From Elusimicrobiota bacterium (GTDB lineage: Bacteria > Elusimicrobiota > Elusimicrobia > JACQJP01), in NCBI GenBank assembly GCA_016204975.1, contig JACQJP010000002.1:1-38398 (forward strand): a DNA stretch of 38,398 nucleotides, read 5' to 3'. Under the pieces are notes generated by a model, which saw only the letters and a program-made list of their open reading frames with translations, was not told the DNA's origin and did no database searches. Positions 10,342 to 29,030 of this stretch are shown one piece after another. Every line of letters begins with the position of its first letter. Position 1 is the stretch's first letter. The position numbers and the translations under genes were made by a program.

Positions 10342-10448
10342 AATACGCGCCTTGTGATGAGGGCCTCGCGTAAAAGGAAGGTTCCATGACGAGAAGCATC
10401 CACGTAAGTTCTGGACTTTTGCAAATGTATTTAATTCCATTCCGAGCC

Positions 10449-11702
10449 ATGAAGGACATCCAGGTCCTCCTGATCGCCCTATGGGTGGGCTTGGCCCCCG
10501 GGCTCCGGGCTCAACCAACGGGCCGTGTCTCGTCCGGGACCCTCTCGCTTCGAGAGGCGCTTGAGTCCGCGGGGCGCGACAATCCAGAGATCCTGGCGGC
10601 GCGCAAGCGCTGGCAGGCCGTCTCGAAGCGGGTCATCCAGACCACCACACCGGACAAGCCGCGGCTCGACATCGAGAAGATGTACGCCCCATCCGGCAAA
10701 AACACCCTAACCGAAGCGGACGAGAGAAACGTGGCCATAAGCCAGGAGATTCCGTTTCCCTCCACCCTTTACCTGCGGCGCGGCGTGGCGGCCAAGGAGG
10801 CCGCGATGGCGGAGCAGGCCTACCGCGCCAAGGTCCGCGAGGTTCTGGCCCGGACGCGCTCCACCTACGCCATGCTTTATCTGGCGCACAAGAGCCTAGA
10901 CATCTTCAACGAGAACATCGATCTGATGCGGCGCTTTGCCAAGGTGGCTGAATCCAAATACGTGGCCGGACACGCCTCCCAGTCCGACGCGCTCAAGGCC
11001 CAAGTGGAGTTGACCAAGATGCTCAATATGGGCGTGATCCTGGCGCAGGACAAGGAGACCGCCGCGGCCATGCTCAACGCCCTGATGAACCGTGATTCCG
11101 GGGAGGCGCTCGGAACTCCGGCGGAGCCGGACATCCCGAAGCTCGATTGGAGCCTCGAGTCGGTTCATGCCCTGGCCCTTGCCGAGCGGCCCGAGCTTAA
11201 AGAGGCTCTCCTTAACGCGCAGCGCGCGAAAAAGTCTCTGGCCGTCGCTCGCTCCGAGTATCTCCCCGATTTCATGCTCCAGTACCGGCAGCGCAGCGAC
11301 CCGATGCGGGGCGGGAGCCGGGACGCGATCCTCGGCCTTTCCATCCCGCTCTGGTTCTGGAAACCGGCGGCCATGGCGGCCCAGGCCAAGGCCGAGCGTG
11401 AGATGGCCGAGGCGGAGCTGCAGGGCATGCGGGTCATGACCTCCGCCGAGGTCAAGAGCGCCTGGGTACGAACTCAGACCGCCAAGCGCCTAGCCGACAT
11501 TTATCGCACCAGCGTCCTACCTCAGGGAGAGGCGGCGCTCAAGGTCGCCGAGGCCGGCTACCAGGCCGAGAAGACAAGCTTCCTCGATCTCCTGGATGCC
11601 CAAAGGTCGTTGCTCAATTTCAGGCTGGAGTATTATCAGTTCCTCGCCGACTACGAGCAGCGTCTGGCCGAGCTCGAACGCATCGTGGGAAGGGGGTTGT
11701 GA
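10449..11702 (+). CDS. TolC-family outer membrane efflux protein (CusC/CzcC-like)
   Basis: MKDIQVLLIALWVGLAPGLRAQ signal peptide at the internal start; LREALESAGRDNPEILAARKRWQAV; AEAGYQAEKTSFLDLLDAQRSLLNFRLEYYQFLADYEQRLAELERIVG; longer ORF starts at 10386. Confidence 0.85.
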   Translation: MKDIQVLLIALWVGLAPGLRAQPTGRVSSGTLSLREALESAGRDNPEILAARKRWQAVSKRVIQTTTPDKPRLDIEKMYAPSGKNTLTEADERNVAISQEIPFPSTLYLRRGVAAKEAAMAEQAYRAKVREVLARTRSTYAMLYLAHKSLDIFNENIDLMRRFAKVAESKYVAGHASQSDALKAQVELTKMLNMGVILAQDKETAAAMLNALMNRDSGEALGTPAEPDIPKLDWSLESVHALALAERPELKEALLNAQRAKKSLAVARSEYLPDFMLQYRQRSDPMRGGSRDAILGLSIPLWFWKPAAMAAQAKAEREMAEAELQGMRVMTSAEVKSAWVRTQTAKRLADIYRTSVLPQGEAALKVAEAGYQAEKTSFLDLLDAQRSLLNFRLEYYQFLADYEQRLAELERIVGRGL

Positions 11703-11706
11703 CGCC

Positions 11707-13101
11707 ATGAAAAGAAAATTCTTGATCCTCGGAGTTTTCGCCGCGCTCCTGGTTGGGGCCGGCTTCGCGGTCCGCTGGTACCGCCACTCCCACCATGCCG
11801 ACATGCGGCAATCGGCCGCGCCGGTCAAGTACTACTGCCCGATGCATCCGAGCTACACCTCGGACAAGCCCGGCGACTGCCCCATCTGCAATATGAAGCT
11901 CGTCCCGATGGAAGAAGCCGGCCCCGCGAAATCAGATGGAACAGGGACTACGCTCTCCGGCAGGCGGGTTTGCCTGCTCCACAAATGCAAGATGGCCAAC
12001 TGCCTCATGGAGCTGCCCCTTAAGGTCGGCCAGAAAGTTTTCTGCCCGGTTTGCGGAACCCATGTGGCCGAGGCTGCGGAAGTATCCACAGGCGTCCCCC
12101 TTTACTATCGGCATCCCATGCGGCCCGAGGTGACCTCCCCCGCGCCCAAGAAAGACGAGATGGGCATGGATTACGTCCCGGTCTACAGCGAGGAGAAGTC
12201 CGAGGTGCCGGTCTCCGGCCAGGCTAGCACCGTTATCTCGGCCGAGCGCCGCCAGATGATCGGGATGAGATCCGAGGCGGTTGAGCGCCGCGACCTGGCC
12301 GTCACCGTGCGCGCCAGCGGCCGGGTGGCCTATGACCCGGACCTCTACAACGCCATCGCCGAGTACCGCGAGGCCGTGAAAACCCGGGACAAGGTCAAGG
12401 ACAGCCCTTGGCCCGACGTTCATGAACGCGCCGAGGCCCTGGTCCGATCCTCCATGCTTAGGCTTCGGCAGATGGGCCTCTCCGAGTCGCAGATCGAGCA
12501 GCTCGCCACCTCCGGAGAGCAGTCCACAAACCTCCTTCTCGGCGGCGCGGGCGGGACGGTCTGGGTCTACGCCCAGATCTATGAGTACGAGATCGGCTTG
12601 GTCAAACCCGGCCAGAAAGTCGAGATGATATCTCCGGCCTATCCAGGACGCAAGTTCCGAGGCATGGTCAAGGCGGTGGACCCCATCCTCTCCGCCGAGA
12701 CGCGCTCGCTGAAAGTCCGCATCGAGGTCCCCAACCCGGAGGGGATGTTGAAACTGGAGATGTACGTCAACGCCGCCATCCGCGTGGATTTGGGTTCGAG
12801 GCTGGCCATCCCCGAAGAGGCCGTGCTCGAAACCGGCGAGCGCAACGTGGCCTTCGTGGACCTCGGGGAAGGCCGCATCGAACCCCGAGAGGTCAATGTG
12901 GGGAGGGAGGCGGACGGCTACTACGAACTCCTCTCCGGCATTGAAGAGGGCGAGAAAGTGGTGACCTCGGCCCAATTCCTCATCGATTCGGAGTCCAGGC
13001 TTAAGGCCGCCCTGTCCAAAACCGGCGCAAAGCCCGAGAAGGGCGAAAAGTCCAAGGAAGGCTCTGAGAAGGAGCCGATGCCGTCGGGGGATCGGCACTG
13101 A
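11707..13101 (+). CDS. Heavy-metal RND efflux periplasmic adaptor (CusB-like) with N-terminal metal-binding modules
   Basis: MKRKFLILGVFAALLVGAGFAV; YYCPMHPSYTSDKPGDCPICNMKLVPM; YYRHPMRPEVTSPAPKKDEMGMDYVPVY; GGTVWVYAQIYEYEIGLVKPGQKVE. Confidence 0.9.
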   Translation: MKRKFLILGVFAALLVGAGFAVRWYRHSHHADMRQSAAPVKYYCPMHPSYTSDKPGDCPICNMKLVPMEEAGPAKSDGTGTTLSGRRVCLLHKCKMANCLMELPLKVGQKVFCPVCGTHVAEAAEVSTGVPLYYRHPMRPEVTSPAPKKDEMGMDYVPVYSEEKSEVPVSGQASTVISAERRQMIGMRSEAVERRDLAVTVRASGRVAYDPDLYNAIAEYREAVKTRDKVKDSPWPDVHERAEALVRSSMLRLRQMGLSESQIEQLATSGEQSTNLLLGGAGGTVWVYAQIYEYEIGLVKPGQKVEMISPAYPGRKFRGMVKAVDPILSAETRSLKVRIEVPNPEGMLKLEMYVNAAIRVDLGSRLAIPEEAVLETGERNVAFVDLGEGRIEPREVNVGREADGYYELLSGIEEGEKVVTSAQFLIDSESRLKAALSKTGAKPEKGEKSKEGSEKEPMPSGDRH

Positions 13102-13109
13102 GTATCGCC

Positions 13110-16100
13110 ATGATCGAGAAACTCATCGCCTGGTCGTCTCGAAACAAGTTCATCGTCCTGATCATGGTTGCCGCAGCGCTGGCCGGCGCTGTCTATAGCA
13201 TCCAGAACGCCCGCTTGGACGCCATCCCCGATCTTTCGGATACCCAGGTCATCATCTACTCGCGCTGGGACCGCTCGCCAGACATCCTCGAGGACCAGGT
13301 GACCTACCCCATCGTTACCGCCATGCTGGGGGCCCCCAAGGTCAAGGCCATCCGCGGCTTCTCGGATTTCGGGTTTTCCTACGTCTACGTCATCTTCCAA
13401 GACGGAACCGACATCTATTGGGCGCGCACGCGGACTTTGGAATACTTGAGCAAGATCCTCCCGCAGCTCCCCGAGGGAGTCAAAACCGAGCTGGGGCCCG
13501 ATGCGACCGGCGTCGGCTGGGTGTACCAATACGCGCTCCGGGACATAAGCGGCCGGCACAGCTTGGCCGACCTGCGCACCTTTCAGGATTGGTACTTGAG
13601 GTATTACCTCCAGTCCGTCCCGGGCGTGGCCGAGGTGGCCTCCATCGGGGGCTTTCAAAAGCAGTACCAAGTCAATCTCGATCCCAACGCCCTCGTCGCC
13701 TACAACATCCCGCTTATGAAGGTGCTGGACGCCGTCCGGGACGGCAACAACGACGTGGGTGGCCGCCTGGTCGAGTTCACCGGCAGGGAGTACATGGTGC
13801 GCGGCCGGGGTTACGCCAAGTCGGTCTCCGATATCGAGAATATCGTGGTGGGCCGGGACAGGAAGGGCACGCCGATCCTGGTCAAAGCCCTGGGCAGGGT
13901 GTCGGTGGGCCCGAATATCCGCCGGGGCATCGCGGAGCTGGACGGCGAGGGCGACGCCGTGGGCGGCATCGTGGTGATGCGCTACGGTGAGAACGCTTTG
14001 AACGTCATTGAGCGGGTGAAAAAGAAGATCTCGGAGCTTAAGCCCTCGCTTCCCCAGGGGGTGGAGCTGGTCACTACTTACGACCGCTCTGAACTGATCA
14101 AACGCTCCATTGATACGCTCAAGGAGGAATTGCTCCTCCAGCTCATCATCGTCAGCCTGGTCATTCTCGTCTTTCTCTGGCACATCCCGACCGCCATCAT
14201 CCCAATCGTCACCATCCCGGTCGCGGTCATTCTGGTTTTCATCCCCATGTACTTCATGGGCCTGACCTCCAACATCATGTCCATCTCCGGCATCGCGATC
14301 TCCATCGGTGTGCTCGTGGACGGCGCCATCGTGGAAGTGGAGAACGCCTATAAGAAGCTTGAGCGTTGGATCGAGGGTGGGCGCAAAGGCGATTTCCACG
14401 AGGTGCGCCTCAAGGCCCTACAGGAGGTCGGCCCGGCCGTGTTCTTCTCGCTTTTGGTGATCGCGGTTGCCTTTATGCCGATATTCACCTTGATGGACCA
14501 GGAGGGCCGGCTCTTCAAACCCTTGGCTTACACCAAGAATCTGGCCATGGCCATCGCCGCGGTCCTGGCCGTCACCTTCGACCCGGCCATGCGCATGATG
14601 TTTTCGCGCATGGACTATTTCACTTTCCGTCCGGCTTGGCTGGCCTGGCTCGTCAACCAAGTCACGGTCGGCAAGTACTACCCCGAGGAACAGCACCCGG
14701 TCAGCAGAGTGTTGTTCAAGTTCTACGAGCCCGCCTGCCGCTTTGTCCTGAGACATCCTTACAAGACGATCGGCGCGGCCGTGCTCTTGGTGCTTTCGAC
14801 GGTGCCCGTTTATATGAGGCTCGGTTCGGAGTTCATGCCGCCCTTAAACGAGGGGACCTTCCTTTATATGCCGACCACCCTGCCGGGTCTCTCGGTCACC
14901 GAGGCCCAGAGCCTGCTCCAGACCCAGGACCGGATCCTGAAGAGTTTCCCTGAGGTGGAGAGCGTGTTCGGTAAGGCGGGCCGCGCCGAGACCTCGACCG
15001 ACCCGGCCCCCTTTTCCATGATGGAGACGACCGTGGTGCTCAAGCCTCGGGAGCAGTGGCGCAAGAAGGAGCGGTGGTATTCCTCTTGGATGCCGGAGCT
15101 TTTGCAGCGGCCTTTGCGCCACCTATGGGACGATCGGCTCAGTTGGGAGGAGCTGGTGGCTGAGATGGATGCCAAGATGCGGTTTCCGGGGGTCGTCAAC
15201 GCCTGGACCATGCCGATCAAGGCCCGGATCGACATGCTCACCACGGGCGTGCGAACGCCCGTCGGTATCAAGATCTTCGGGGCCGATCTCAAGGAAATCG
15301 AGCGGGTCGGAAGGGAGCTGGAGGAGGTCCTCCAGACCATCGACGGCACGCGAAGCGTCTATGCCGAGCGGACGGCGGGAGGCTATTTTCTGGACTTTGA
15401 TTTGAAGCGCGAGGAGCTGGCCCGCTACGGCCTGACGATCAAGGAAGCGGAGATGGTCATCGTGTCGGCCATCGGCGGCGAATCGATCACCACCACGGTG
15501 GAGGGCCGCGAACGCTATTCGGTCAACGTGCGCTATGCCCGCGAGCTGCGCGATACCCTCCCTAAGTTGAGAAGGGTACTGGTCCCCACCATGGGTGGAG
15601 CCCAGGTGCCCCTGGCGCAGCTCGCGGATATCGAGCTGAGGCTGGGACCAGCCATGATCCGCAACGAGAACGGGCTCCTGGCAGGCTATGTCTACGTGGA
15701 TGTGGCGGGCCGGGACATCGGCGGCTACGTGGAAGAGGCCAAAAAGAAAGTGACCCAAGCCATCTCGCTTCCCGCCGGCTACTCGATTGCGTGGAGCGGC
15801 CAGTACGAGAACATGGCGCGGGTCAGGGAGCGGCTCAAGGTCGTGTTGCCGCTCACCCTCTTTATCATCCTGTTTCTGCTCTACATGAACACGAAGTCGT
15901 GGGTAAAAACCGGCATCGTGATGCTGGCCGTCCCCTTCTCGCTTGTCGGCGCGGTCTGGCTGCTCTACGGCTTGGATTACAACATCTCTATCGCGGTCTG
16001 GGTCGGCATGATCGCGCTTATGGGTTTAGACGCCGAGACCGGCGTCTTCATGCTCCTCTATCTCGACTTGGCCTATTACGACATGGTCCGGCAAGGGCGC

Positions 16101-16391
16101 ATGCGCACGGCGGCGGACCTGGATGAAGCTGTGATCCACGGAGCCGTCAAGCGGGTGCGGCCCAAGATGATGACCGTGGCCTGCGCCTTCATGGGATTGG
16201 TGCCCATCCTGTGGTCTTTGGGCGCCGGAGCGGACCTCATGAAGCGCATCGCCGCGCCCATGATCGGCGGGCTTTTCACGAGCTTCATCATGGAATTGCT
16301 GGTCTATCCCCCGATCTTCTTTCTGTGGAAATGGCACTACGAGATGAGGAAGGGAACGGTGGATGTTTCCACCGGGCTGTCCATTCGGTAG
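13110..16391 (+). CDS. CusA/CzcA-family heavy-metal RND efflux pump
   Basis: 1093 aa; NARLDAIPDLSDTQVIIYSRWDRSPDILEDQVTYPIVTAMLGAPKVKAIRGFSDFGFSYVYVIF; MIALMGLDAETGVFMLLYLD. Confidence 0.95.
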   Translation: MIEKLIAWSSRNKFIVLIMVAAALAGAVYSIQNARLDAIPDLSDTQVIIYSRWDRSPDILEDQVTYPIVTAMLGAPKVKAIRGFSDFGFSYVYVIFQDGTDIYWARTRTLEYLSKILPQLPEGVKTELGPDATGVGWVYQYALRDISGRHSLADLRTFQDWYLRYYLQSVPGVAEVASIGGFQKQYQVNLDPNALVAYNIPLMKVLDAVRDGNNDVGGRLVEFTGREYMVRGRGYAKSVSDIENIVVGRDRKGTPILVKALGRVSVGPNIRRGIAELDGEGDAVGGIVVMRYGENALNVIERVKKKISELKPSLPQGVELVTTYDRSELIKRSIDTLKEELLLQLIIVSLVILVFLWHIPTAIIPIVTIPVAVILVFIPMYFMGLTSNIMSISGIAISIGVLVDGAIVEVENAYKKLERWIEGGRKGDFHEVRLKALQEVGPAVFFSLLVIAVAFMPIFTLMDQEGRLFKPLAYTKNLAMAIAAVLAVTFDPAMRMMFSRMDYFTFRPAWLAWLVNQVTVGKYYPEEQHPVSRVLFKFYEPACRFVLRHPYKTIGAAVLLVLSTVPVYMRLGSEFMPPLNEGTFLYMPTTLPGLSVTEAQSLLQTQDRILKSFPEVESVFGKAGRAETSTDPAPFSMMETTVVLKPREQWRKKERWYSSWMPELLQRPLRHLWDDRLSWEELVAEMDAKMRFPGVVNAWTMPIKARIDMLTTGVRTPVGIKIFGADLKEIERVGRELEEVLQTIDGTRSVYAERTAGGYFLDFDLKREELARYGLTIKEAEMVIVSAIGGESITTTVEGRERYSVNVRYARELRDTLPKLRRVLVPTMGGAQVPLAQLADIELRLGPAMIRNENGLLAGYVYVDVAGRDIGGYVEEAKKKVTQAISLPAGYSIAWSGQYENMARVRERLKVVLPLTLFIILFLLYMNTKSWVKTGIVMLAVPFSLVGAVWLLYGLDYNISIAVWVGMIALMGLDAETGVFMLLYLDLAYYDMVRQGRMRTAADLDEAVIHGAVKRVRPKMMTVACAFMGLVPILWSLGAGADLMKRIAAPMIGGLFTSFIMELLVYPPIFFLWKWHYEMRKGTVDVSTGLSIR

Positions 16392-20814: not shown

Positions 20815-21438
20815 CTAGTACTGGCGGAAGGCCCAGACCCAACCTCGATGAACCTGGAGGGATACGGTCTTGGCGTTCGCCAGATTGCTGACCCCCCGGG
20901 AACCTGCCGGGAGCCACTGGCGCCGTAGGGGGTAGAGAACCCCGGATAGACTCACCTGGGATTTTTCCGGCCCGGAGATGAGGGCAACTCCCCGCTTCTT
21001 TTTTGAGCGGAACCTCCATCTTTTCCCCACCAGCCTCAGTTCCCCGTCCCTGGCCCAAAAAGAGATCTCGAAGGAGCCTTTGAAGTTTTCTGCCGCCTTG
21101 AGATTTCCCAGGCTGTGGTCCGTCCGTCGCCCCAGGGCTCCCAGGACCCACACCTGGAGGGGCCGGAGCCGCCGCCTCAAAAAATCAAAGGCCTTTTCCA
21201 GGTCCGAACGGTCAGGGTCCGGCTCATAGACCCATAGGGTCCCCGGCCGCCCCCCTTCGGGGCCATAGGAATCCAGATCCCCCAGAATCCATCGAGGGAC
21301 AATTCCAAACCGCTTTGCCTCTCGGGCTCCCCCGTCCACCGCAAGCGCCGCGTCCGCTTCTTTCCAGACCCTTCGGACGATGGGGGCGGGGGGATACTCT
21401 CCATTCGCAAAAACAAGAATACGGCGAAGGCTGGTCAC
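20815..21438 (-). CDS. Thiamine pyrophosphokinase-like protein
   Basis: ILVFANGEYPP; ALAVDGGAREAKRFGIVPRWILGDLDS; PDRSDLEKAFDFL; VLGALGRRTDHSLGNL; GTG start at 21438. Confidence 0.72.
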   Translation of the reverse strand: MTSLRRILVFANGEYPPAPIVRRVWKEADAALAVDGGAREAKRFGIVPRWILGDLDSYGPEGGRPGTLWVYEPDPDRSDLEKAFDFLRRRLRPLQVWVLGALGRRTDHSLGNLKAAENFKGSFEISFWARDGELRLVGKRWRFRSKKKRGVALISGPEKSQVSLSGVLYPLRRQWLPAGSRGVSNLANAKTVSLQVHRGWVWAFRQY

Positions 21439-21935
21439 GGTTTTTTGGATCTGGGAGCGGGCAGTTTGCGGATTTTTTTTATAAGGCCGGTGGTGGAAAA
21501 TCCAGGGACCCACGGCGCTCGAACCACGCGATCGGCAAATTCTCGGCCCACGATCTCCCCGGGACGGTAGTCCGCCCCCTTGACCAGCACCTCCGGCCGG
21601 ATCGTTCTAAGCAGTTTTTTGGGAGTTGTTTCCGGAAAGATGGTCACATAATCCACGCAGGCCAGGGCTGCCAAGAGCCTCCCACGCAGGTCCTGGCGGA
21701 TGAGGGGCCGCCCCCGGCCCTTCAATTTCCGAACGGAGGAGTCCGAGTTGACCCCCACCACCAGAATCTCGCCGCAGGTCTTGGCTTTTTGAAGGGTCGC
21801 AATGTGTCCGATGTGCAGCAGATCGAAACACCCGTTGGTAAAGACGATGCGACGTCCACGCCGGCGGTGGGCTTTCAGTTTTTTCAACAAGGCGGGGAGG
21901 GGGAGAACCTTTGAAAAAGAGCTCAGAGTGTTCAA
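21435..21935 (-). CDS. rfaE2: D-glycero-beta-D-manno-heptose 1-phosphate adenylyltransferase-like (RfaE C-domain)
   Basis: RIVFTNGCFDLLHIGHIATLQKAK; ILVVGVNSDSSVRKLKGRGRPL; VLVKGADYRPGEIVG; TTG start overlapping the gmhA stop as TTGA. Confidence 0.87.
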   Translation of the reverse strand: MNTLSSFSKVLPLPALLKKLKAHRRRGRRIVFTNGCFDLLHIGHIATLQKAKTCGEILVVGVNSDSSVRKLKGRGRPLIRQDLRGRLLAALACVDYVTIFPETTPKKLLRTIRPEVLVKGADYRPGEIVGREFADRVVRAPWVPGFSTTGLIKKIRKLPAPRSKKP

Positions 21936-22573
21936 GGGAAGAGGGCCTGTTCCACGAAAGCACAGATGGCGTGAATGGCCGCGATGTGGCTTTCCTGAAT
22001 GCGCTCGGTGGCCTCGGAGGGGACACAAATGCAGAGGTCAACCCGCGCCTTGAGTTTGCCTCCGCTTCGGCCGGTCAGGCCGATCACCCGGGCCCCGCAC
22101 CTTTTGGCCTCCTGGGCGGCTTTCAGGACATTGGGGGAGTTGCCGCTGGTGGAAAGCACAAAGAGCAAATCTCCCGCCACCACATGCGCCTGGACTTGAC
22201 GGGAGAACACCTCCTCGAAGCTGAAGTCATTGCCGATGGCGGTCAGGTCCGAGGTGTTGACGGTCAAGGCCAGGGCGGGAAGGGCGCGCCGGTTTTTCTT
22301 GAAACGCCCCACCAGCTCCGCCGCAAAATGCTGCGAATCCGCCGCGCTGCCGCCATTGCCGCAAATCACGAGTTTCCTTCCCTGCCGGTAGGTTTCCACG
22401 GACCACCGGGCGGCTTGCAGTATCTGGGAAGCGGACTCCGAGGAAAATTTTTCCAAGGTTTTTGCGCTGTCCTTGAGTTGGGTCTCGATCTCCTCCGCAA
22501 TACCTGCCGATAAGGTGTACTTCCTTTCGGCAGGTACCTGGCGCACTATATTGCGCCGGGTATGCTTAGTCAT
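21932..22573 (-). CDS. gmhA: Phosphoheptose isomerase (SIS domain)
   Basis: LVICGNGGSAADSQHFAAELVGRFKKNRRALPALALT; LLFVLSTSGNSPNVLKAAQEAK; ESHIAAIHAICAFVEQALF; ATG overlaps accC stop. Confidence 0.9.
   Translation of the reverse strand: MTKHTRRNIVRQVPAERKYTLSAGIAEEIETQLKDSAKTLEKFSSESASQILQAARWSVETYRQGRKLVICGNGGSAADSQHFAAELVGRFKKNRRALPALALTVNTSDLTAIGNDFSFEEVFSRQVQAHVVAGDLLFVLSTSGNSPNVLKAAQEAKRCGARVIGLTGRSGGKLKARVDLCICVPSEATERIQESHIAAIHAICAFVEQALFP
22501..22536 (-). repeat. Palindromic element within the gmhA 5' coding end
   Basis: TACCTGCCGA (22501-22510) and TCGGCAGGTA (22527-22536), perfect 10-bp inverted repeat; loop contains AAGG/CCTT; read as VPAERKYTLSAG. Confidence 0.7.
22540..22557 (-). 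repeat. Second perfect inverted repeat abutting the first in the gmhA 5' end
   Basis: GGCGCA (22540-22545) and TGCGCC (22552-22557), 6-nt loop. Confidence 0.6.
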
Positions 22574-23958
22574 GGGTGGGGCTCCTTTGGTAAGATCGGG
22601 TCCATGGGAACCGTGTGATTGAGGAACTCCTGTTCCACAAAACCGGTGTGGACCTTCCCCCTCTGAAACGCCTCACACTCCAATATCCTGCGGTGAAGGG
22701 AAAGGGTCGTGTCGATGCCTGCGATTTGGAATTCCTCCAGCGCATTTCGTGCCCGGGCCAGGGCCGATCTTCGATCTTTCCCGCAGCAGATGAGCTTGGC
22801 GATCAGGCTGTCGTAATAGCTGGGGACACAGTAGCCCTCATACACATGTGTGTCCACTCGGACTCCTTGACCTGCGGGCGGGCGCCACTTGGAAACCCGG
22901 CCCGGGGAGGGAGAAAAATTCCTCTCCGGATTTTCGGCGTTGATGCGGTGCTCGATGGCGTGCCCCAGGATCTTCACGGGCCGGCGCCGCATGGGACGGC
23001 CCTGGGCGATACGAATCTGCTCGCAGACCAGGTCTATGCCGGTCACCATCTCCGTGACCGGATGCTCCACCTGCAGGCGGGAGTTTACCTCCATAAAATA
23101 GAATTTTCCTTCGGGGCTTAGGAGAAACTCCACCGTCCCCAAGTTGCTGTATCGGACGGCGCGCGCCACCCGGCAGGCCGCCTCCTGAAGCGAGCGGCGC
23201 AGGCGGGGCGAAACCGCCGGCGAGGGAGACTCCTCCACCAGCTTCTGGTGCTTGCGCTGCAGGGAGCAGTCCCTTTCGGGAAAGGCGAGGACGCGGCCTT
23301 CCAGATCGGCCGCGATCTGGATTTCCACATGGCGGGGTCTTTCCAGGTATCTCTCCAGATAGAGGGAGCCATCCCCGAAGGCGGCCTGGGCCTCGCGGCC
23401 GGCGGTTTCCCAGTCCGTCAAAAGCCCACGGGGGTCCCGCGTCAAACGTATTCCCCGCCCGCCCCCTCCTGCGGCGGCCTTGATCATCAAGGGATAGCCG
23501 ATCGAGGCGGCCAGCTTCTGAAGCGCGGCCTGGGAGAGGGTACGGAAGGCCCCCTCGGTTCCCGGAACCACCGGTACTCCGTTGGCCTTGGCCAGAACTC
23601 TGGCCACCGCCTTGTTTCCGGATTTTTCAATGGCCTCCTCCGTTGGGCCGATGAAGACCAACCCCGCCTCTCGGCAGGCCCTGGCAAAACGGGAATTTTC
23701 AGAAAGGAAACCGTAACCGGGATGCACCGCTTGCGCGCCGCTTAAACGGGCCGCGGAGAGGATTGCCTCCACGCAAAGGTAGCTCTGGGCGGAAGGCCCG
23801 GGGCCGATGCACCAAGCCTCATCCGCCAGGCGCAGATGCAGGGATTCCCGATCCGCCTCGGAGTAGATGGCCACCGTCTGAAGGCCCAGGCGGCGGCAGG
23901 CGCGGATCACCCGCACCGCGATCTCACCCCGGTTGGCCACTAAAACCTTTTTAAACAC
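22570..23958 (-). CDS. accC: Acetyl-CoA carboxylase biotin carboxylase subunit
   Basis: MFKKVLVANRGEIAVRVIRACRRLG; MIKAAAGGGGRGIR; FMEVNSRLQVEHPVTEMVTGIDLV; HRINAENPERNFSPSPG. Confidence 0.95.
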   Translation of the reverse strand: MFKKVLVANRGEIAVRVIRACRRLGLQTVAIYSEADRESLHLRLADEAWCIGPGPSAQSYLCVEAILSAARLSGAQAVHPGYGFLSENSRFARACREAGLVFIGPTEEAIEKSGNKAVARVLAKANGVPVVPGTEGAFRTLSQAALQKLAASIGYPLMIKAAAGGGGRGIRLTRDPRGLLTDWETAGREAQAAFGDGSLYLERYLERPRHVEIQIAADLEGRVLAFPERDCSLQRKHQKLVEESPSPAVSPRLRRSLQEAACRVARAVRYSNLGTVEFLLSPEGKFYFMEVNSRLQVEHPVTEMVTGIDLVCEQIRIAQGRPMRRRPVKILGHAIEHRINAENPERNFSPSPGRVSKWRPPAGQGVRVDTHVYEGYCVPSYYDSLIAKLICCGKDRRSALARARNALEEFQIAGIDTTLSLHRRILECEAFQRGKVHTGFVEQEFLNHTVPMDPILPKEPHP

Positions 23959-24346
23959 CCGTGGGAACCTCTATTAGAAACAAGGGTTGGCCGTAATGCA
24001 CCGCCTCCCCTTCCTGGATCAAAACCCTGCGGAGCCTTCCCGCAGCGGGGCTTTCCACCGGTATGACCTTGCGGCCCATCTCGATCCACCCGAGTTTTTC
24101 GCCTTTTTTCAAATCCCTGCCTTCCGTATCGTCGCAGCCGGGGTACCCCGGTTTTCCCAGCCGGAAAACCCCCACCGCAGGGGAGGCCACGGCCCTCCAG
24201 GGCTTGGAGGGCAGGCGGGTCCCGGAGGAGGAGAGCTCCTGCGACTTTTTAAAGTGAAAGCGCTCCTGGCCCTTTTCCCAGTAGACCTCCATCAGATCGG
24301 TGGAGTCAATGAAATCTATGATTTGCTTCGCTTGTGAAAGGTCCAT
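23951..24346 (-). CDS. accB: Biotin carboxyl carrier protein-like (AccB fold) lacking the canonical biotinylation motif
   Basis: VASPAVGVFRLGKPGYPG...LKKGEKLGWIEMGRKVIPVESPAAGRLRRVLIQEGEAVHYGQPLFLIE aligns ungapped with the AccB C-terminal domain; adjacent to accC. Confidence 0.82.
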   Translation of the reverse strand: MDLSQAKQIIDFIDSTDLMEVYWEKGQERFHFKKSQELSSSGTRLPSKPWRAVASPAVGVFRLGKPGYPGCDDTEGRDLKKGEKLGWIEMGRKVIPVESPAAGRLRRVLIQEGEAVHYGQPLFLIEVPTGV

Positions 24347-24358
24347 AGCGAGGAACGG

Positions 24359-24790
24359 CTACCTTTCCGGCCGGAACCTTTTGAACGGGAACGGAAGAAT
24401 CTCCGGCACCGTCTTGCGAGAGAAGGCCTTCCGGCCGTTCGACCGGACGCTTAAAAGCAAAAGCTCCGCCCTGGGGCCGAACTCCTGCAAAACCTGTCGG
24501 CAGGCTCCACAAGACTCTACCTCCCGGCCCACAATGGCGATTTTTTTAATCCGTCTTTCCCCGCAGCTGAGAGCATTGAAGATGGCCACGCGCTCCGCGC
24601 AGCAGGTCAGCCCAAAGGAGACATTCTCCACGTTGCAGCCCTCATAAATTCTCCCTGAGGAGGCCAGGACCGCCGCGCCCACCGGATAGCGGGAATAGGG
24701 GCAATAGGCCTTTTTGCGGCATTCTGTGGCGCGTCGAAGGAGCTGCCTTTCCAGCGAGCTCAGCACGACGTCGTGCGCGAGAATACCCAT
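24359..24790 (-). CDS. cdd: Cytidine deaminase
   Basis: AYCPYSRYPVGAAVLASSGRIYEGCNVENVSFGLTCCAERVAIFNAL; ESCGACRQVLQEFG. Confidence 0.92.
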   Translation of the reverse strand: MGILAHDVVLSSLERQLLRRATECRKKAYCPYSRYPVGAAVLASSGRIYEGCNVENVSFGLTCCAERVAIFNALSCGERRIKKIAIVGREVESCGACRQVLQEFGPRAELLLLSVRSNGRKAFSRKTVPEILPFPFKRFRPER

Positions 24791-25660
24791 CTAGCTTCTC
24801 CGGGGGGAGGGTTTCAGATGCCTGCCGATCAGAAGCTCGAGTTTCCGACGGGCGGCAGGGGCCATGGCCTGCGCCCGGGTAAAGACGGCGTTCGCCAGGG
24901 CCTGACCGCAGCCGCAGCTTCTGGGCAGGCCGGCCACCCTGGGTAAAGCGGTCCGGATGAGCTTCTGGACGTTACGAACGTTGACACTGAGATTTTCCAG
25001 CACCTTCTCCATGGTCACCTCTTCCCCATCCTTCCAGACGTCGTAATCGGTTACCAGCGAGATGCTGGAGTAGCACAGCTGGGCCTCCCGGGCGAGCTTC
25101 GCCTCCGGAGCGGCGGTCATTCCGATCACGGAGTATCCCGCGCGCCGGTGGTCCTGGGATTCTGCGCGGGTGGAGAAGGCCGGTCCCTCGATGCAGACGT
25201 AGGTTCCCCCCGCATGGGCCGAGAAGCCCAGCCGGCTAGCCTCTTCGTAAAGAACTCCAGACAGCTCCCGGCAGAAGGGATCCGCCAAACCGACGTGCCC
25301 CACGATCCCTCCTCCGAAGAAGGTGGATATCCGCCTGGTCTTGTCCACCAGCTGATCCGGGAAGACGATATGCCGAGGCGCCAGCTCCTCCTTCAAAGAG
25401 CCCACCGCCGCCACCGAGAGGACCCGCTCCACCCCCAAGGACTTGAAGGCATACAGGTTGGCCCGCGCGTTGATCTCGGAGGGTAAGAGGCGATGACCGC
25501 TGCCATGCCGAGGCAGAAAGGCGAAGCGGACGCCGTCCAACTCCCCGATCTGAATCTCATCCGAGGGGGAGCCGAAGGGAGTCTTGGCCTTCACCCGCTC
25601 CAGGGGGCGGACCCCTTCGAAGCAGTAGAGACCGCTCCCTCCCAAGACCCCGATTCGCAC
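24791..25660 (-). CDS. mtnP: S-methyl-5'-thioadenosine phosphorylase
   Basis: IGVLGGSGLY; FLPRHGSGHRLLPSEINARANLYAFKSLGVERVLSVAAVGSLKEELAPRHIVFPDQLVDKT; VIGMTAAPEAKLAREAQLCYSSISLVTDYDVW; GTG start at 25660 is a choice, ORF extends to 25714. Confidence 0.9.
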   Translation of the reverse strand: MRIGVLGGSGLYCFEGVRPLERVKAKTPFGSPSDEIQIGELDGVRFAFLPRHGSGHRLLPSEINARANLYAFKSLGVERVLSVAAVGSLKEELAPRHIVFPDQLVDKTRRISTFFGGGIVGHVGLADPFCRELSGVLYEEASRLGFSAHAGGTYVCIEGPAFSTRAESQDHRRAGYSVIGMTAAPEAKLAREAQLCYSSISLVTDYDVWKDGEEVTMEKVLENLSVNVRNVQKLIRTALPRVAGLPRSCGCGQALANAVFTRAQAMAPAARRKLELLIGRHLKPSPRRS

Positions 25661-25697
25661 GGAAGGAGGCTTGTCTCGTCGCTTGTGCACTGGGCAG

Positions 25698-25706
25698 ATT
25701 ATATCA
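25698..25706 (-). promoter_or_regulatory. Extended -10 promoter (TGATATAAT) reading towards mtnP
   Basis: Minus strand TG-A-TATAAT in the divergent intergenic region. Confidence 0.45.
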
Positions 25707-25790
25707 AAAAACAAGTTTTTTCATCCTTTTCCCACTTTTTGATAGAATGCTTGCGGCAGCGGCAACCTGCTGATCTGAGGAGGTGGTGGG

Positions 25791-26735
25791 ATGACGAAAT
25801 CCCTGATTACCGGCGTGACCGGCCTCATCGGCTCGCACCTGGCGGAGTTTCTTTTACGCAAGGGGCACCGGGTTTGGGGGCTCTACCTCAAAACCCACCC
25901 CATGCATGTCCCCGTCCTGAGAGACAAGAAAATCCACTACATTCTGTGCGATTTAAACTCCAAGCGCAGGCTGCAAAATCTGATCCTTAGGATACGTCCG
26001 CGGTACCTGTTCCATCTAGGAGCACAATCTTATGTGCGCCCTTCCTGGGAGGACCCGGAATATACGCTGCGCACCAACATCTTAAGCACCCTCTGGATTC
26101 TGGAAGCCGCTCGCAGGCTGCGTCCTTCTCCCACGGTGGTTTTGGCCAGCTCCTCCGCCGAATACGGCTCGAATCTCCCCTCCGAGGTCCCGATTCGGGA
26201 AAACAAGGAGTTTCGCCCCTCCTCTCCTTATGCCGTCAGCAAGGTGGCCTCCGATATGTTGGGGTATCTCTATGCCCAGGCCTATCCCCTGCGCATCCTG
26301 CGCGCCCGCTACTTCAACACCACCGGTCCCCGCAAGGTGGCCGATGCCTGCTCGGATTTTGCCTTCCGGATCGCCCAGGCGGAGAAGAGGTCCTTCTCCA
26401 AAATCCCCGTGGGCAACCTCCGGCCCATCCGGGACATCACTGATGTCCGGGATGTGGTCCGCGCCACCTGGCTTATCGCCCAGAAGGGAAAAAACGGCGA
26501 GGCCTACAACGTCTGTTCCGGGAGGGCCATCTCGGTGGGCAGGATTTTGAAAATATTGCTTTCCTTGTCCAAAGGCAAGATCCACATCTTCAGGGATTCA
26601 AAACTCCTCCGTAGGATGGACGATCCTATTTTTGTGGGTGATTGTGCCAAGCTGCGAAAATTGGGTTGGAGGCCCCGCATTCCCATCCAACAAACTCTGA
26701 AAGACTTGCTGAACTTCTGGAGGCAGAGGGTGTAG
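25791..26735 (+). CDS. NAD-dependent epimerase/dehydratase (GDP-mannose 4,6-dehydratase/reductase-like)
   Basis: SLITGVTGLIGSHLAEFLLRKGHRVWGL; RPRYLFHLGAQSYVRPSWEDPEYTLRTNILSTLWILEA; YAVSK; GAGGAGGTGGTGGG upstream. Confidence 0.87.
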   Translation: MTKSLITGVTGLIGSHLAEFLLRKGHRVWGLYLKTHPMHVPVLRDKKIHYILCDLNSKRRLQNLILRIRPRYLFHLGAQSYVRPSWEDPEYTLRTNILSTLWILEAARRLRPSPTVVLASSSAEYGSNLPSEVPIRENKEFRPSSPYAVSKVASDMLGYLYAQAYPLRILRARYFNTTGPRKVADACSDFAFRIAQAEKRSFSKIPVGNLRPIRDITDVRDVVRATWLIAQKGKNGEAYNVCSGRAISVGRILKILLSLSKGKIHIFRDSKLLRRMDDPIFVGDCAKLRKLGWRPRIPIQQTLKDLLNFWRQRV

Positions 26736-26736
26736 A

Positions 26737-27462
26737 ATGGTTGCGGTCATCGTGGCGGGGGGAAGGGGAGAAAGAATGCGGGCCCTGGCGCGCGGAATTC
26801 CTAAGCCGATGCTGCCCATAAACGGCCGACCCCTCCTGGAACACCAGCTGCGGTGGCTTCGCAAAAATGGCTTTCGCCGCATCTTTCTATGTCTGGGCTA
26901 CCGGGGCAACAGCATCCGCCGGCATTTTAAAGATGGCGGGGCCTGGGGGGTATGCCTGCGGTACCGCTTGGAAAAGCGCCCCCTGGGGACGGCAGGCTGT
27001 GTGAGACCGCTCTCTTCACAACTTCGCCGGAGCTTCTTGGTGGTCTACGGGGATCTCTATGCCCGTATGGGCCTCGATGCGCTGCAGTGTGCCCACCAAA
27101 AAAACCGGCGGGACCCCCGCTGCCTCGGGACGCTGGTTTTAAAGAATACCGACCATCCCTCAGACAGTGATCTGGCGGCAGTCAATTCCCGGGGCCGGAT
27201 CCTCCGTTTTTTCAATAAACCCCATGCCCATCCGCCCCGGACCCGCCTGGCCAACGCGGCGGTCTATCTCCTGGAACCCAAAATCTGTTCGCTCATTCCC
27301 AGCGGGCGCTCCTCGGATTTCGCCCGGGACATCTTTCCCAATGCCCTGGCCCGGGGGCATCGGCTTTATGGGCACCGCACCCGAGGACTGCTTCAGGACA
27401 TTGGGACCCCGGGACGCTATCGGGAGGCGCAGAAGACGGCACAGAGGAGGGGTTTGGGGTGA
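26737..27462 (+). CDS. hddC: Nucleotidyltransferase, D-glycero-alpha-D-manno-heptose 1-phosphate guanylyltransferase-like
   Basis: MVAVIVAGGRGERMRALARGIPKPMLPINGRPLLEHQLRWLRKNGFRRIFLCLGY; adjacent to hddA. Confidence 0.8.
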   Translation: MVAVIVAGGRGERMRALARGIPKPMLPINGRPLLEHQLRWLRKNGFRRIFLCLGYRGNSIRRHFKDGGAWGVCLRYRLEKRPLGTAGCVRPLSSQLRRSFLVVYGDLYARMGLDALQCAHQKNRRDPRCLGTLVLKNTDHPSDSDLAAVNSRGRILRFFNKPHAHPPRTRLANAAVYLLEPKICSLIPSGRSSDFARDIFPNALARGHRLYGHRTRGLLQDIGTPGRYREAQKTAQRRGLG

Positions 27463-28445
27463 TTATTTCCAAAACCCCCTTTCGCATCAGCTTCGCCGGG
27501 GGCGGCACGGATCTTTCGGCCTTCTACGAGGAGGTGCCGGGGGCGGTGGTCTCCACCGCCGTCAATAAGTATATGTACCTGACCGTCAACCACTACCTGG
27601 AGCCCAAATATCTATTGAAATATTCCAAGACGGAGCTTGTGGGCCGTCCGGAACAGGTCCAGCACCCCATCCTCCGGGAGGTCCTTATGCTTCTGAAGGT
27701 CCCCCCCCATATCGAGATCACCTCTATGGCGGACATCCCGGGGGGCACCGGCCTGGGTTCCTCCAGCAGCTTCACGGTGGGTCTGCTGCATGCCCTGCAT
27801 GCCTATGGGGGGCAGTTTCAATCCTCGGAGGAGCTGGCCCGTCAAGCCTGCGAGGTGGAGATCGAGAAGCTTGGGGAGCCCATCGGCAAGCAGGACCAGT
27901 ACATCGCCGCCTACGGGGGACTGGAATTCATACAGTTTAATCCGGATGGGTCGGTCTTCGTTAGCCCCATCATCTGCTCCCCTGCCACCAAAGAGGCGCT
28001 CCAGATGCGGCTGCTCCTTTTCTACACCGGGAAAAAAAGGAGCGCCGCCAGCATCCTCACCCAGCAAAAAGAAGACACCGGAAAGAAAAAAGAAATCCTG
28101 AAAAAAATACTGCAACTGGCGCAGGACCTGCGTTGTGAACTCCAGAAGGATCATCCCGAAGCGCTGGGCGAGATTTTGAAGGCGGGCTGGAGCTATAAAA
28201 AGCAAGTTGCCAGCAAGGTTTCCGCTCCGGAGATTGACCAGGCCTACGAGGCGGCGCTGCGGGCAGGGGCGGCGGGGGGAAAAATTTTGGGAGCTGGCGG
28301 GGGGGGATTTCTTCTGTTATACTGTGACGAAAATAGACAGGAAGCGGTCCGCCGAGCCCTAGAACCCGCCCTTAAAAAAATTCCCTTTCAACTGGAGCCC
28401 CAAGGGAGCAAGATCATCTATGTGGAGCCGGAGCAGGTGGAGTAA
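27459..28445 (+). CDS. hddA: GHMP kinase, D-glycero-alpha-D-manno-heptose 7-phosphate kinase-like
   Basis: IISKTPFRISFAGGGTDLSAFYEEVPGAVVSTAVNKYMYLTVN; IPGGTGLGSSSSFTVGLLHAL; GEPIGKQDQYIAAYGGLEFIQFNPDGSV; GGKILGAGGGGFLLLYC. Confidence 0.88.
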   Translation: MIISKTPFRISFAGGGTDLSAFYEEVPGAVVSTAVNKYMYLTVNHYLEPKYLLKYSKTELVGRPEQVQHPILREVLMLLKVPPHIEITSMADIPGGTGLGSSSSFTVGLLHALHAYGGQFQSSEELARQACEVEIEKLGEPIGKQDQYIAAYGGLEFIQFNPDGSVFVSPIICSPATKEALQMRLLLFYTGKKRSAASILTQQKEDTGKKKEILKKILQLAQDLRCELQKDHPEALGEILKAGWSYKKQVASKVSAPEIDQAYEAALRAGAAGGKILGAGGGGFLLLYCDENRQEAVRRALEPALKKIPFQLEPQGSKIIYVEPEQVE

Positions 28446-28451
28446 TTAACC

Positions 28452-29030
28452 ATGGAGAGTGTGGAAGCGGAAGCTAAAAAATATTGGTCCGAGTTGAAGT
28501 CCTGCGCGGACAAAATTGACTTGGCCGCATTGGAAAAAATCGTGCGCCTCTTTCAGGAGACCTATGCGCAGGGGGGGAACGTCTATGTGATGGGCAATGG
28601 GGGGTCGGCGACCACCGCCTCACATCTGGCCTGTGACTTAAACAAAACCGCCTCCAGCCCCGGAAAGAAACGCTTCAAGGTGGTCGCCTTAAACGACAAC
28701 ATCCCGGTGATGCTGGCCATCGGCAACGATATCCACTTCGAGCAGATCTTCGCAGAGCAGCTGCGGAATTTTTTGACCTCGCAAGACGCCCTCCTATTTC
28801 TTTCCGGCAGCGGAAACTCCCCCAACGTGCTGAAAGCGGCGGAGCTGGCCCGCGCCCTCGGCTCCAAGACGGCGGCCTTCCTGGGATTTCGCGGAGGCAG
28901 GCTCAAGGCCTTGGTGGACTATCCCCTGGTCATTGAGAGCGATCACTACGGCATCATTGAGGATCTCCACCTCTCCCTCTGCCACTTCCTGACCTTTTAT
29001 TTTAAAAAGGCGATCGCGCAACAACCATGA
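28452..29030 (+). CDS. gmhA: Second SIS-domain phosphoheptose isomerase-like protein
   Basis: VYVMGNGGSATTASHLACDLNK; ALLFLSGSGNSPNVLKAAELARALG; directly after hddA. Confidence 0.82.
   Translation: MESVEAEAKKYWSELKSCADKIDLAALEKIVRLFQETYAQGGNVYVMGNGGSATTASHLACDLNKTASSPGKKRFKVVALNDNIPVMLAIGNDIHFEQIFAEQLRNFLTSQDALLFLSGSGNSPNVLKAAELARALGSKTAAFLGFRGGRLKALVDYPLVIESDHYGIIEDLHLSLCHFLTFYFKKAIAQQP

What the first reader, a model, noticed from the sequence alone, without database searches (positions are those of the whole stretch)
23951..24346. AccB-like carrier whose biotinylated lysine position is Arg (IEMGRKVIPVE in place of IVEAMKMMNQIE)
The C-terminal ~75 residues align without gaps to the AccB biotinyl domain as I know it from E. 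coli. In that alignment the modified Lys of EAMKM falls on Arg92 (codon CGC at 24071-24073), with Lys93 one residue later; the canonical AMK triplet reads M-G-R. Flanking structural residues (VxSPxVGxF, GxxLKKG, EGxxVxYGQPLF) are kept, and the gene overlaps an apparently intact accC. Either the modification site has shifted by one residue, or the protein is an unmodified partner of AccC, or a sequence change removed function. The thumb segment and the hairpin both look otherwise intact, so this is not an obvious frameshift.
Basis: partly seen in the sequence, partly recalled or inferred. Interest (0 to 1): 0.72.

Follow-up and report, generated by a model that had tools for sequence, protein, structure and literature searches.

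The report
Non-biotinylated AccB paralogue paired with AccC
A small protein made together with a fatty-acid-synthesis enzyme subunit (AccC) looks like the biotin-carrying subunit AccB but has lost its biotin attachment site; it is no error, because this gene position has lost that site about seven times in one bacterial phylum while a normal AccB is kept elsewhere in the genome, so it probably works as a structural partner like the plant BADC proteins.

Summary
Window 23951-24346(-) encodes a 131-aa AccB-like protein (AlphaFold: helix, hairpin, BCCP barrel) whose aligned biotin-lysine is Arg92 (EMGR for EAMK). The gene overlaps accC by 8 nt. It is neither an error nor a decaying gene. The genome belongs to the phylum Elusimicrobiota, where genomes carry two AccBs. 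AccB1, typically beside pnp, has EAMK in 75 of 75 sequences, including this genome's. AccB2, beside accC, is the window gene. In 42 AccB2s from lineages with split AccA/AccD, 35 keep the lysine and 7 have Arg or Gln (EAMR/ETMR/VAMR/EAMQ). In the window's clade none of 73 AccB2s has EAMK, yet dN/dS is mostly 0.01-0.35. On an AccC tree the motif state changes at least 7 times. In the window's clade AccA/AccD are also absent and a one-chain MmdA/PccB-type carboxyltransferase is present (one phylogenetic event). Seventy control AccBs from outside the phylum all keep the lysine. Best reading: AccB2 is a non-catalytic AccC partner, a bacterial analogue of plant BADC, possibly bridging AccC to the replacement carboxyltransferase. 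Shown: motif loss, conservation, operon coupling, canonical second AccB. Inferred: AccC binding and function. Novelty: new variant of a known kind.

The parts
23951..24346 (-). accB2: AccB-like protein of 131 aa lacking the biotinylation motif
   Evidence: ORF; Pfam Biotin_lipoyl 27.3 bits, over its cut-off of 22.1; TIGR00531 BCCP 38.5 bits, far below its cut-off of 115.2; conserved family A1
24245..24346 (-). N-terminal domain, residues 1-34: helix plus beta-hairpin, with TDL (residues 16-18) invariant in alignment A1
   Evidence: AlphaFold secondary structure H3-14, E18-24, E29-34; alignment A1
24200..24244 (-). short flexible linker, residues 35-49
   Evidence: pLDDT < 50 at residues 36-45
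23969..24199 (-). C-terminal BCCP-fold barrel, residues 50-126
   Evidence: pLDDT mostly > 90; Foldseek best hit 1bdo (E. coli biotinyl domain), TMt 0.88, and 4hr7 chain G TMt 0.89
24071..24082 (-). E89-M90-G91-R92, in the place of the biotinylation motif E-A-M-K
   Evidence: codon read; alignment to E. coli K122
22570..23958 (-). accC, biotin carboxylase, the only copy in the genome; overlaps accB2 by 8 nt
   Evidence: NF006367 645.8 bits; single match in the genome
21932..22573 (-). SIS-domain (GmhA-like) gene downstream of accC; also found downstream of accC in several relatives
   Evidence: PF13580; synteny
21435..22028 (-). cytidylyltransferase-like (RfaE C-domain type) gene, also linked in relatives; the listed start may be too far upstream
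   Evidence: PF01467; synteny
24359..24790 (-). cytidine-deaminase-family gene, upstream neighbour also seen in relatives
   Evidence: PF00383; synteny
24791..25714 (-). nucleoside (MTA-type) phosphorylase, upstream neighbour also seen in relatives
   Evidence: PF01048; synteny

Best explanation
The gene is accB2, the accC-linked of two ancient AccB paralogues in Elusimicrobiota. It has lost biotinylation and is kept as a non-catalytic subunit. AccB1, encoded beside pnp, carries biotin. AccB2 is co-translated with AccC, most likely binds it through its conserved N-terminal helix-hairpin and barrel, and holds or tunes the AccC-AccB1 assembly, as BADC does for the plant plastid enzyme. In the window's clade, where AccA/AccD are replaced by a one-chain MmdA/PccB-type carboxyltransferase and the free AccC has no BC-CT linking domain, AccB2 may also help dock AccC to that carboxyltransferase. 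Shown: motif loss, conservation, purifying selection, operon linkage, a canonical AccB1, the carboxyltransferase swap. Inferred: binding to AccC, the assembly role, the docking role.
For: (1) None of 73 AccB2s of the window's clade has EAMK, and most lack Lys; AccB1 has EAMK in 75 of 75. (2) At least seven changes of motif state on the AccC tree, including EAMR, ETMR, VAMR and EAMQ in lineages that keep AccA/AccD. (3) dN/dS between close relatives is 0.01-0.35 in 19 of 20 pairs; the one exception, 0.48, has dS of only 0.10. (4) accB2 lies upstream of accC on the same strand in 105 of 115 cases, 80 of them within 150 nt or overlapping. (5) The window genome has only four PF00364 matches: AccB1, AccB2, a lipoyl E2 and GcvH, so AccB1 is its only canonical biotin acceptor. 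(6) Full AccB architecture predicted: N-domain, linker, BCCP barrel. (7) Plant BADC is a characterised precedent: BCCP-like, lacking the motif, binding BC and BCCP (PMC11926652). (8) AccA/AccD are replaced by a one-chain carboxyltransferase in every clade genome where one was found, 49 of 49, against separate AccA/AccD matches in 47 of 47 others.
Against: No physical interaction was tested or modelled, since complexes could not be predicted here. The link with the carboxyltransferase swap is one phylogenetic event, so it may be coincidence, and lysine loss also occurs in AccA/AccD lineages. Eighteen of 73 clade members keep a Lys at the site in an altered context (EMNK, EVGK, EAGK) and might still be modified. 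In some families a zinc-ribbon gene lies between accB2 and accC.
Confidence: 0.66

Rival explanations
1. AccB2 is mainly an autoregulator: its N-terminal domain controls expression of the accB2-accC operon, as AccB is reported to do in E. coli, and the barrel is vestigial.
For: The N-terminal domain is well conserved (TDL invariant in A1), the gene is first of the pair, and E. coli AccB is known to autoregulate accBC (own knowledge, not checked here).
Against: The C-terminal barrel is also strongly conserved (VxYGQPLFFIE) and predicted well folded; no DNA-binding feature was found.
Confidence: 0.12
2. AccB2 is a competitive brake: it occupies AccB sites on AccC and lowers ACC activity, the inhibitor model first proposed for BADC.
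For: Coupled synthesis with AccC and an intact fold; the inhibitor model exists for plant BADC (PMC11926652).
Against: A constitutive inhibitor made with every AccC seems costly; the 2025 BADC study favours the assembly model.
Confidence: 0.1
3. The biotinylation site has shifted: Lys93, or another lysine near the hairpin, is biotinylated.
For: Lys93 follows Arg92; 20 of 73 clade members have Lys at the next position and 18 of 73 at the site itself.
Against: Neither position is conserved; EAM is gone; an AccB1 with a perfect motif is present.
Confidence: 0.05
4. AccB2 is a decaying duplicate kept by chance next to accC.
For: A functional AccB1 makes it potentially redundant; the motif is eroded.
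Against: Low dN/dS, retention across nine families of the clade with an open frame, invariant positions.
Confidence: 0.04
5. Sequencing or assembly error at 24065-24085.
For: The source is a metagenome-assembled genome; reads were not available.
Against: All 73 orthologues of the clade lack the motif in different sequence contexts and genomes.
Confidence: 0.01

Closest known systems
BADC (biotin attachment domain-containing) proteins of plant plastid heteromeric ACCase
   Same: BCCP-like fold, about a quarter to a third identical to BCCP, no AMK biotinylation motif, coexists with a biotinylated BCCP; a non-catalytic subunit binding BC and BCCP is the proposed role here too
   Different: Eukaryotic plastid origin; here the gene belongs to an accC-linked AccB2 branch of Elusimicrobiota, so it is most likely an independent analogue. 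Interaction is shown for BADC, not here. The window's clade lacks AccA/AccD, which BADC's enzyme has.
Canonical AccB/BCCP (E. coli AccB, PDB 1BDO, 4HR7)
   Same: N-terminal helix-hairpin, linker, biotinyl-domain barrel, accBC gene order
   Different: No EAMK motif, thumb Tyr lost, score far below the TIGR00531 cut-off
AccE (epsilon) subunit and BT domain of acyl-CoA carboxylases
   Same: Possible functional parallel: a non-catalytic element linking BC to a one-chain carboxyltransferase (PMC3199775)
   Different: No sequence relation found; AccB2 is BCCP-derived, and the bridging role is conjecture

Membership tests
AccB/BCCP biotin carrier (TIGR00531) | Biotinylation motif E-A-M-K with the target lysine | tested here: not met
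   EMGR in the window; 0 of 73 EAMK in its clade
AccB/BCCP biotin carrier (TIGR00531) | Score over the curated cut-off of 115.2 bits | tested here: not met
   38.5 bits; note that the genome's own AccB1, with the motif, also falls just short at 109.7 bits
AccB/BCCP biotin carrier (TIGR00531) | BCCP fold with AccB-type N-terminal domain | tested here: met
   AlphaFold model; Foldseek to 1bdo and 4hr7
AccB/BCCP biotin carrier (TIGR00531) | Carries biotin in vivo | not testable with these tools
   needs blot or MS
Plant BADC | BCCP homologue lacking the biotinylation motif | tested here: met
Plant BADC | Coexists with a catalytic, biotinylatable BCCP | tested here: met
   AccB1 with EAMK in the same genome
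Plant BADC | Binds BC and BCCP in the ACCase complex | not testable with these tools
   no complex prediction or assay possible
Plant BADC | Descends from the plant/plastid BADC lineage | tested here: inconclusive
   No BADC sequence was put in the trees. The domain tree without motif columns places the clade's AccB2 as one branch among Elusimicrobiota AccBs, and AccC and synteny agree, which makes an independent origin likely
Acyl-CoA carboxylase AccE / BT domain | Sequence or fold relation to AccE or BT | tested here: not met
   Pfam, NCBIfam and Foldseek give BCCP/biotinyl domains as the best hits

The most novel reading that the evidence does not exclude
Elusimicrobia of this clade run a rearranged acetyl-/acyl-CoA carboxylase: bacterial-type AccC plus biotinylated AccB1 plus a one-chain MmdA/PccB-type carboxyltransferase, held together by the non-biotinylated AccB2, which replaces the BT domain or AccE subunit used elsewhere. 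A carrier protein would have been turned into an obligate bridging subunit.
Probability: 0.28. Interest if true: 0.77.

Novelty: new variant of a known kind. Interest (0 to 1): 0.62.

Why it matters
BADC-type subunits are described as unique to the plant enzyme (PMC11926652), and whether they are inhibitors or assembly factors is disputed. A bacterial analogue that arose independently, with about seven separate losses of the same lysine, gives a natural replicated experiment: it implies that an AccC-bound, non-carrier AccB copy is useful in itself. It also bears on a gap noted in 2011, that the Elusimicrobia genome then known has an ACC-type biotin carboxylase but neither AccA nor AccD (PMC3199775, Table 1), and it makes a simple reconstitution test possible. 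Annotation that calls this gene accB would wrongly take it for the biotin carrier.

Tried and rejected
First genome-contig scan with A1: not conserved enough; A2 worked. Shifted lysine: rejected, not conserved. Miscall or pseudogene: rejected. Strict link of lysine loss with the carboxyltransferase swap: rejected as a general rule, because six of the changes fall in AccA/AccD lineages. Natural fusion of AccB2 to AccC: long open frames in high-GC genomes looked like frame read-through upstream of the start, not fusions (judged by eye). birA in the window genome: not found with TIGR00121 or PF03099; the MAG is 87% complete, and four clade relatives checked have ligases over the TIGR00121 cut-off. 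Literature searches for a bacterial non-biotinylated AccB paralogue gave none in the open-access library. One alignment with an out-of-frame member failed and was redone.

Full report
What was checked. The ORF at 23951-24346 on the minus strand is intact, 131 aa. Its C-terminal domain aligns to the E. coli AccB biotinyl domain with K122 on Arg92 (codon CGC, 24071-24073), followed by Lys93. Pfam recognises a biotin/lipoyl domain over the cut-off, while the BCCP equivalog model scores far below its cut-off, 38.5 against 115.2 bits. The gene overlaps accC by 8 nt. AccC is a normal biotin carboxylase by NCBIfam and the only one in the genome.

The genome. The window is contig C3 of a 1.5-Mb, 55-contig MAG, 87% complete. 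Named records carrying the closest relatives of the gene are Elusimicrobia/Elusimicrobiota; the genome therefore most likely lies in that phylum. The genome has four Biotin_lipoyl matches. One is a second AccB with a perfect EAMKVFNE motif, on another contig between pnp and an ftsK-like gene. The others are the window gene, a lipoyl E2 and a GcvH. So the biotin carrier role is filled by the other AccB, called AccB1 here.

Two AccB paralogues across the phylum. I read 190 AccB-like sequences: 75 AccB1 and 115 AccB2. AccB1 is typically beside pnp and has EAMK in 75 of 75. AccB2 was found upstream of accC on the same strand in 105 of 115, and within 150 nt or overlapping in 80. In 42 AccB2s from lineages outside the window's clade, the lysine is kept in 35 (EAMK, ETMK, ECMK) and lost in 7 by what look like point changes: EAMR in G148, G149, G153; ETMR in G173, G178; VAMR in G168; EAMQ in G006. 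Each of these seven genomes has an AccB1 with EAMK. In the window's clade (families f1, f2, f3, f8, f9, f10, f13, f14, f15) 0 of 73 have EAMK; the residue at the site is Ser 24, Lys 18, Ala 11, Gly 7, Arg 3 and others. Seventy AccBs outside the phylum, found by the same search, all keep the lysine: 69 EAMK, 1 EALK.

Tree and selection. On a maximum-likelihood AccC tree of 73 rows (quick search) the window's clade is one branch (SH-aLRT 96), and the motif state needs at least seven changes. G000 itself is a long branch, so its exact place within the clade is unsure. A domain tree without the motif columns separates AccB1, other AccB2 and the clade's AccB2, but it has few columns and many unresolved forks. 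dN/dS of AccB2 between close relatives is 0.01-0.35 in 19 of 20 pairs, usually higher than that of AccC but clearly purifying.

Structure. AlphaFold with 23 sequences gives mean pLDDT 81: helix 3-14 and hairpin 18-34, a disordered linker, then a BCCP barrel at pLDDT mostly over 90, with R92 at the hairpin turn where biotin-lysine normally sits. Foldseek's best hit is the E. coli biotinyl domain 1bdo; Arabidopsis BCCP1 (9a87) and E. coli BCCP from the AccB-AccC complex (4hr7) also rank high. The relative orientation of the two domains is not reliable (pTM 0.58).

Carboxyltransferase swap. Among genomes searched for PF01039, every one of the window's clade with a match (49 of 49) has only one-chain carboxyltransferases of about 520 aa or fragments of them, and every other one with a match (47 of 47) has the short separate matches of AccA and/or AccD; three of the latter also have a one-chain form (counted by hand from the tables). 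NCBIfam places the one-chain enzyme nearest MmdA. In the window's genome it neighbours a methylmalonyl-CoA-epimerase-like gene and MeaB. In f10 and f14 genomes it neighbours a phosphopantetheinyl-transferase-like gene and a large ORF, which fits the 'Type R' lipid synthase cluster described for Elusimicrobium minutum (PMC3098273). The absence of AccA/AccD agrees with Table 1 of PMC3199775 for its single Elusimicrobia genome. Because the clade is one branch, this co-occurrence is a single event and cannot be tested statistically. Lysine loss also happened about six times without it.

Interpretation. Repeated loss of exactly the modified lysine, with fold, gene and operon position preserved and a separate intact carrier present where checked, is what is expected if AccB2's useful role does not need biotin. 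The best-known precedent is plant BADC, a BCCP-like, motif-less subunit that binds BC and BCCP, argued to be either a glue or an inhibitor (PMC11926652). I therefore propose a BADC-like AccC partner (confidence 0.66). A bridging role towards the one-chain carboxyltransferase is attractive, since free AccC lacks the BT domain and some acyl-CoA carboxylases need AccE instead (PMC3199775), but it is conjecture. Rivals are autoregulation, inhibition, a shifted site, decay and error.

Limits. No reads, no complex prediction, no assay. birA was not found in the window's MAG; clade relatives have it. AccB1 and AccB2 were both read in 70 genomes; in the rest one of the two was not fetched or lay at a contig end. 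The literature search covers open-access papers only.

Noticed in passing
L160:2759-4396(-), L171:4812-6812(+), L146:2526-4148(-), L135:3584-5239(-): In several families (f13, f14, f15, part of f8) a gene of about 430-720 aa starting with a double zinc ribbon, in one case with TPR repeats, lies between accB2 and accC; possibly a further regulator of the pair.
   Followed up: partly
L156:4520-4795(+), also L172 and L169 beside accB1: A small ORF of 85-91 aa without any Pfam match lies next to accB1, between it and an ftsK-like gene in several genomes (not seen in the window's genome, where the ftsK-like frame follows directly).
   Followed up: partly
L309, L310, L312, L315, L316: The one-chain carboxyltransferase sits beside a phosphopantetheinyl-transferase-like gene and often a very large ORF in f10 and f14 genomes, as expected for a dedicated malonyl-CoA supply to a Pfa-like lipid synthase.
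   Followed up: partly
G000 (whole genome): No biotin protein ligase (TIGR00121, PF03099) was found in the window's MAG, although relatives have one; probably in the missing part of the genome.
   Followed up: partly
window 10386-16391: An outer-membrane-factor, membrane-fusion and RND-pump set resembling a Cus-type heavy-metal efflux system, read by eye from the translations.
   Followed up: no
window 25791-29030 and 21435-22573: Two separate SIS-domain (GmhA-like) genes, a GHMP-type kinase, a nucleotidyltransferase and an epimerase, looking like a heptose-nucleotide and surface-sugar cluster on both sides of accB2-accC.
   Followed up: no
L173 (G019), L152 (G002), L157 (G011), family f3: In family f3 the AccC stem branch is very long (1.39 changes per column) and accB2 is strongly diverged, with EAVK, EGAA or AGED at the motif; AccC may have changed partner or function there.
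   Followed up: no
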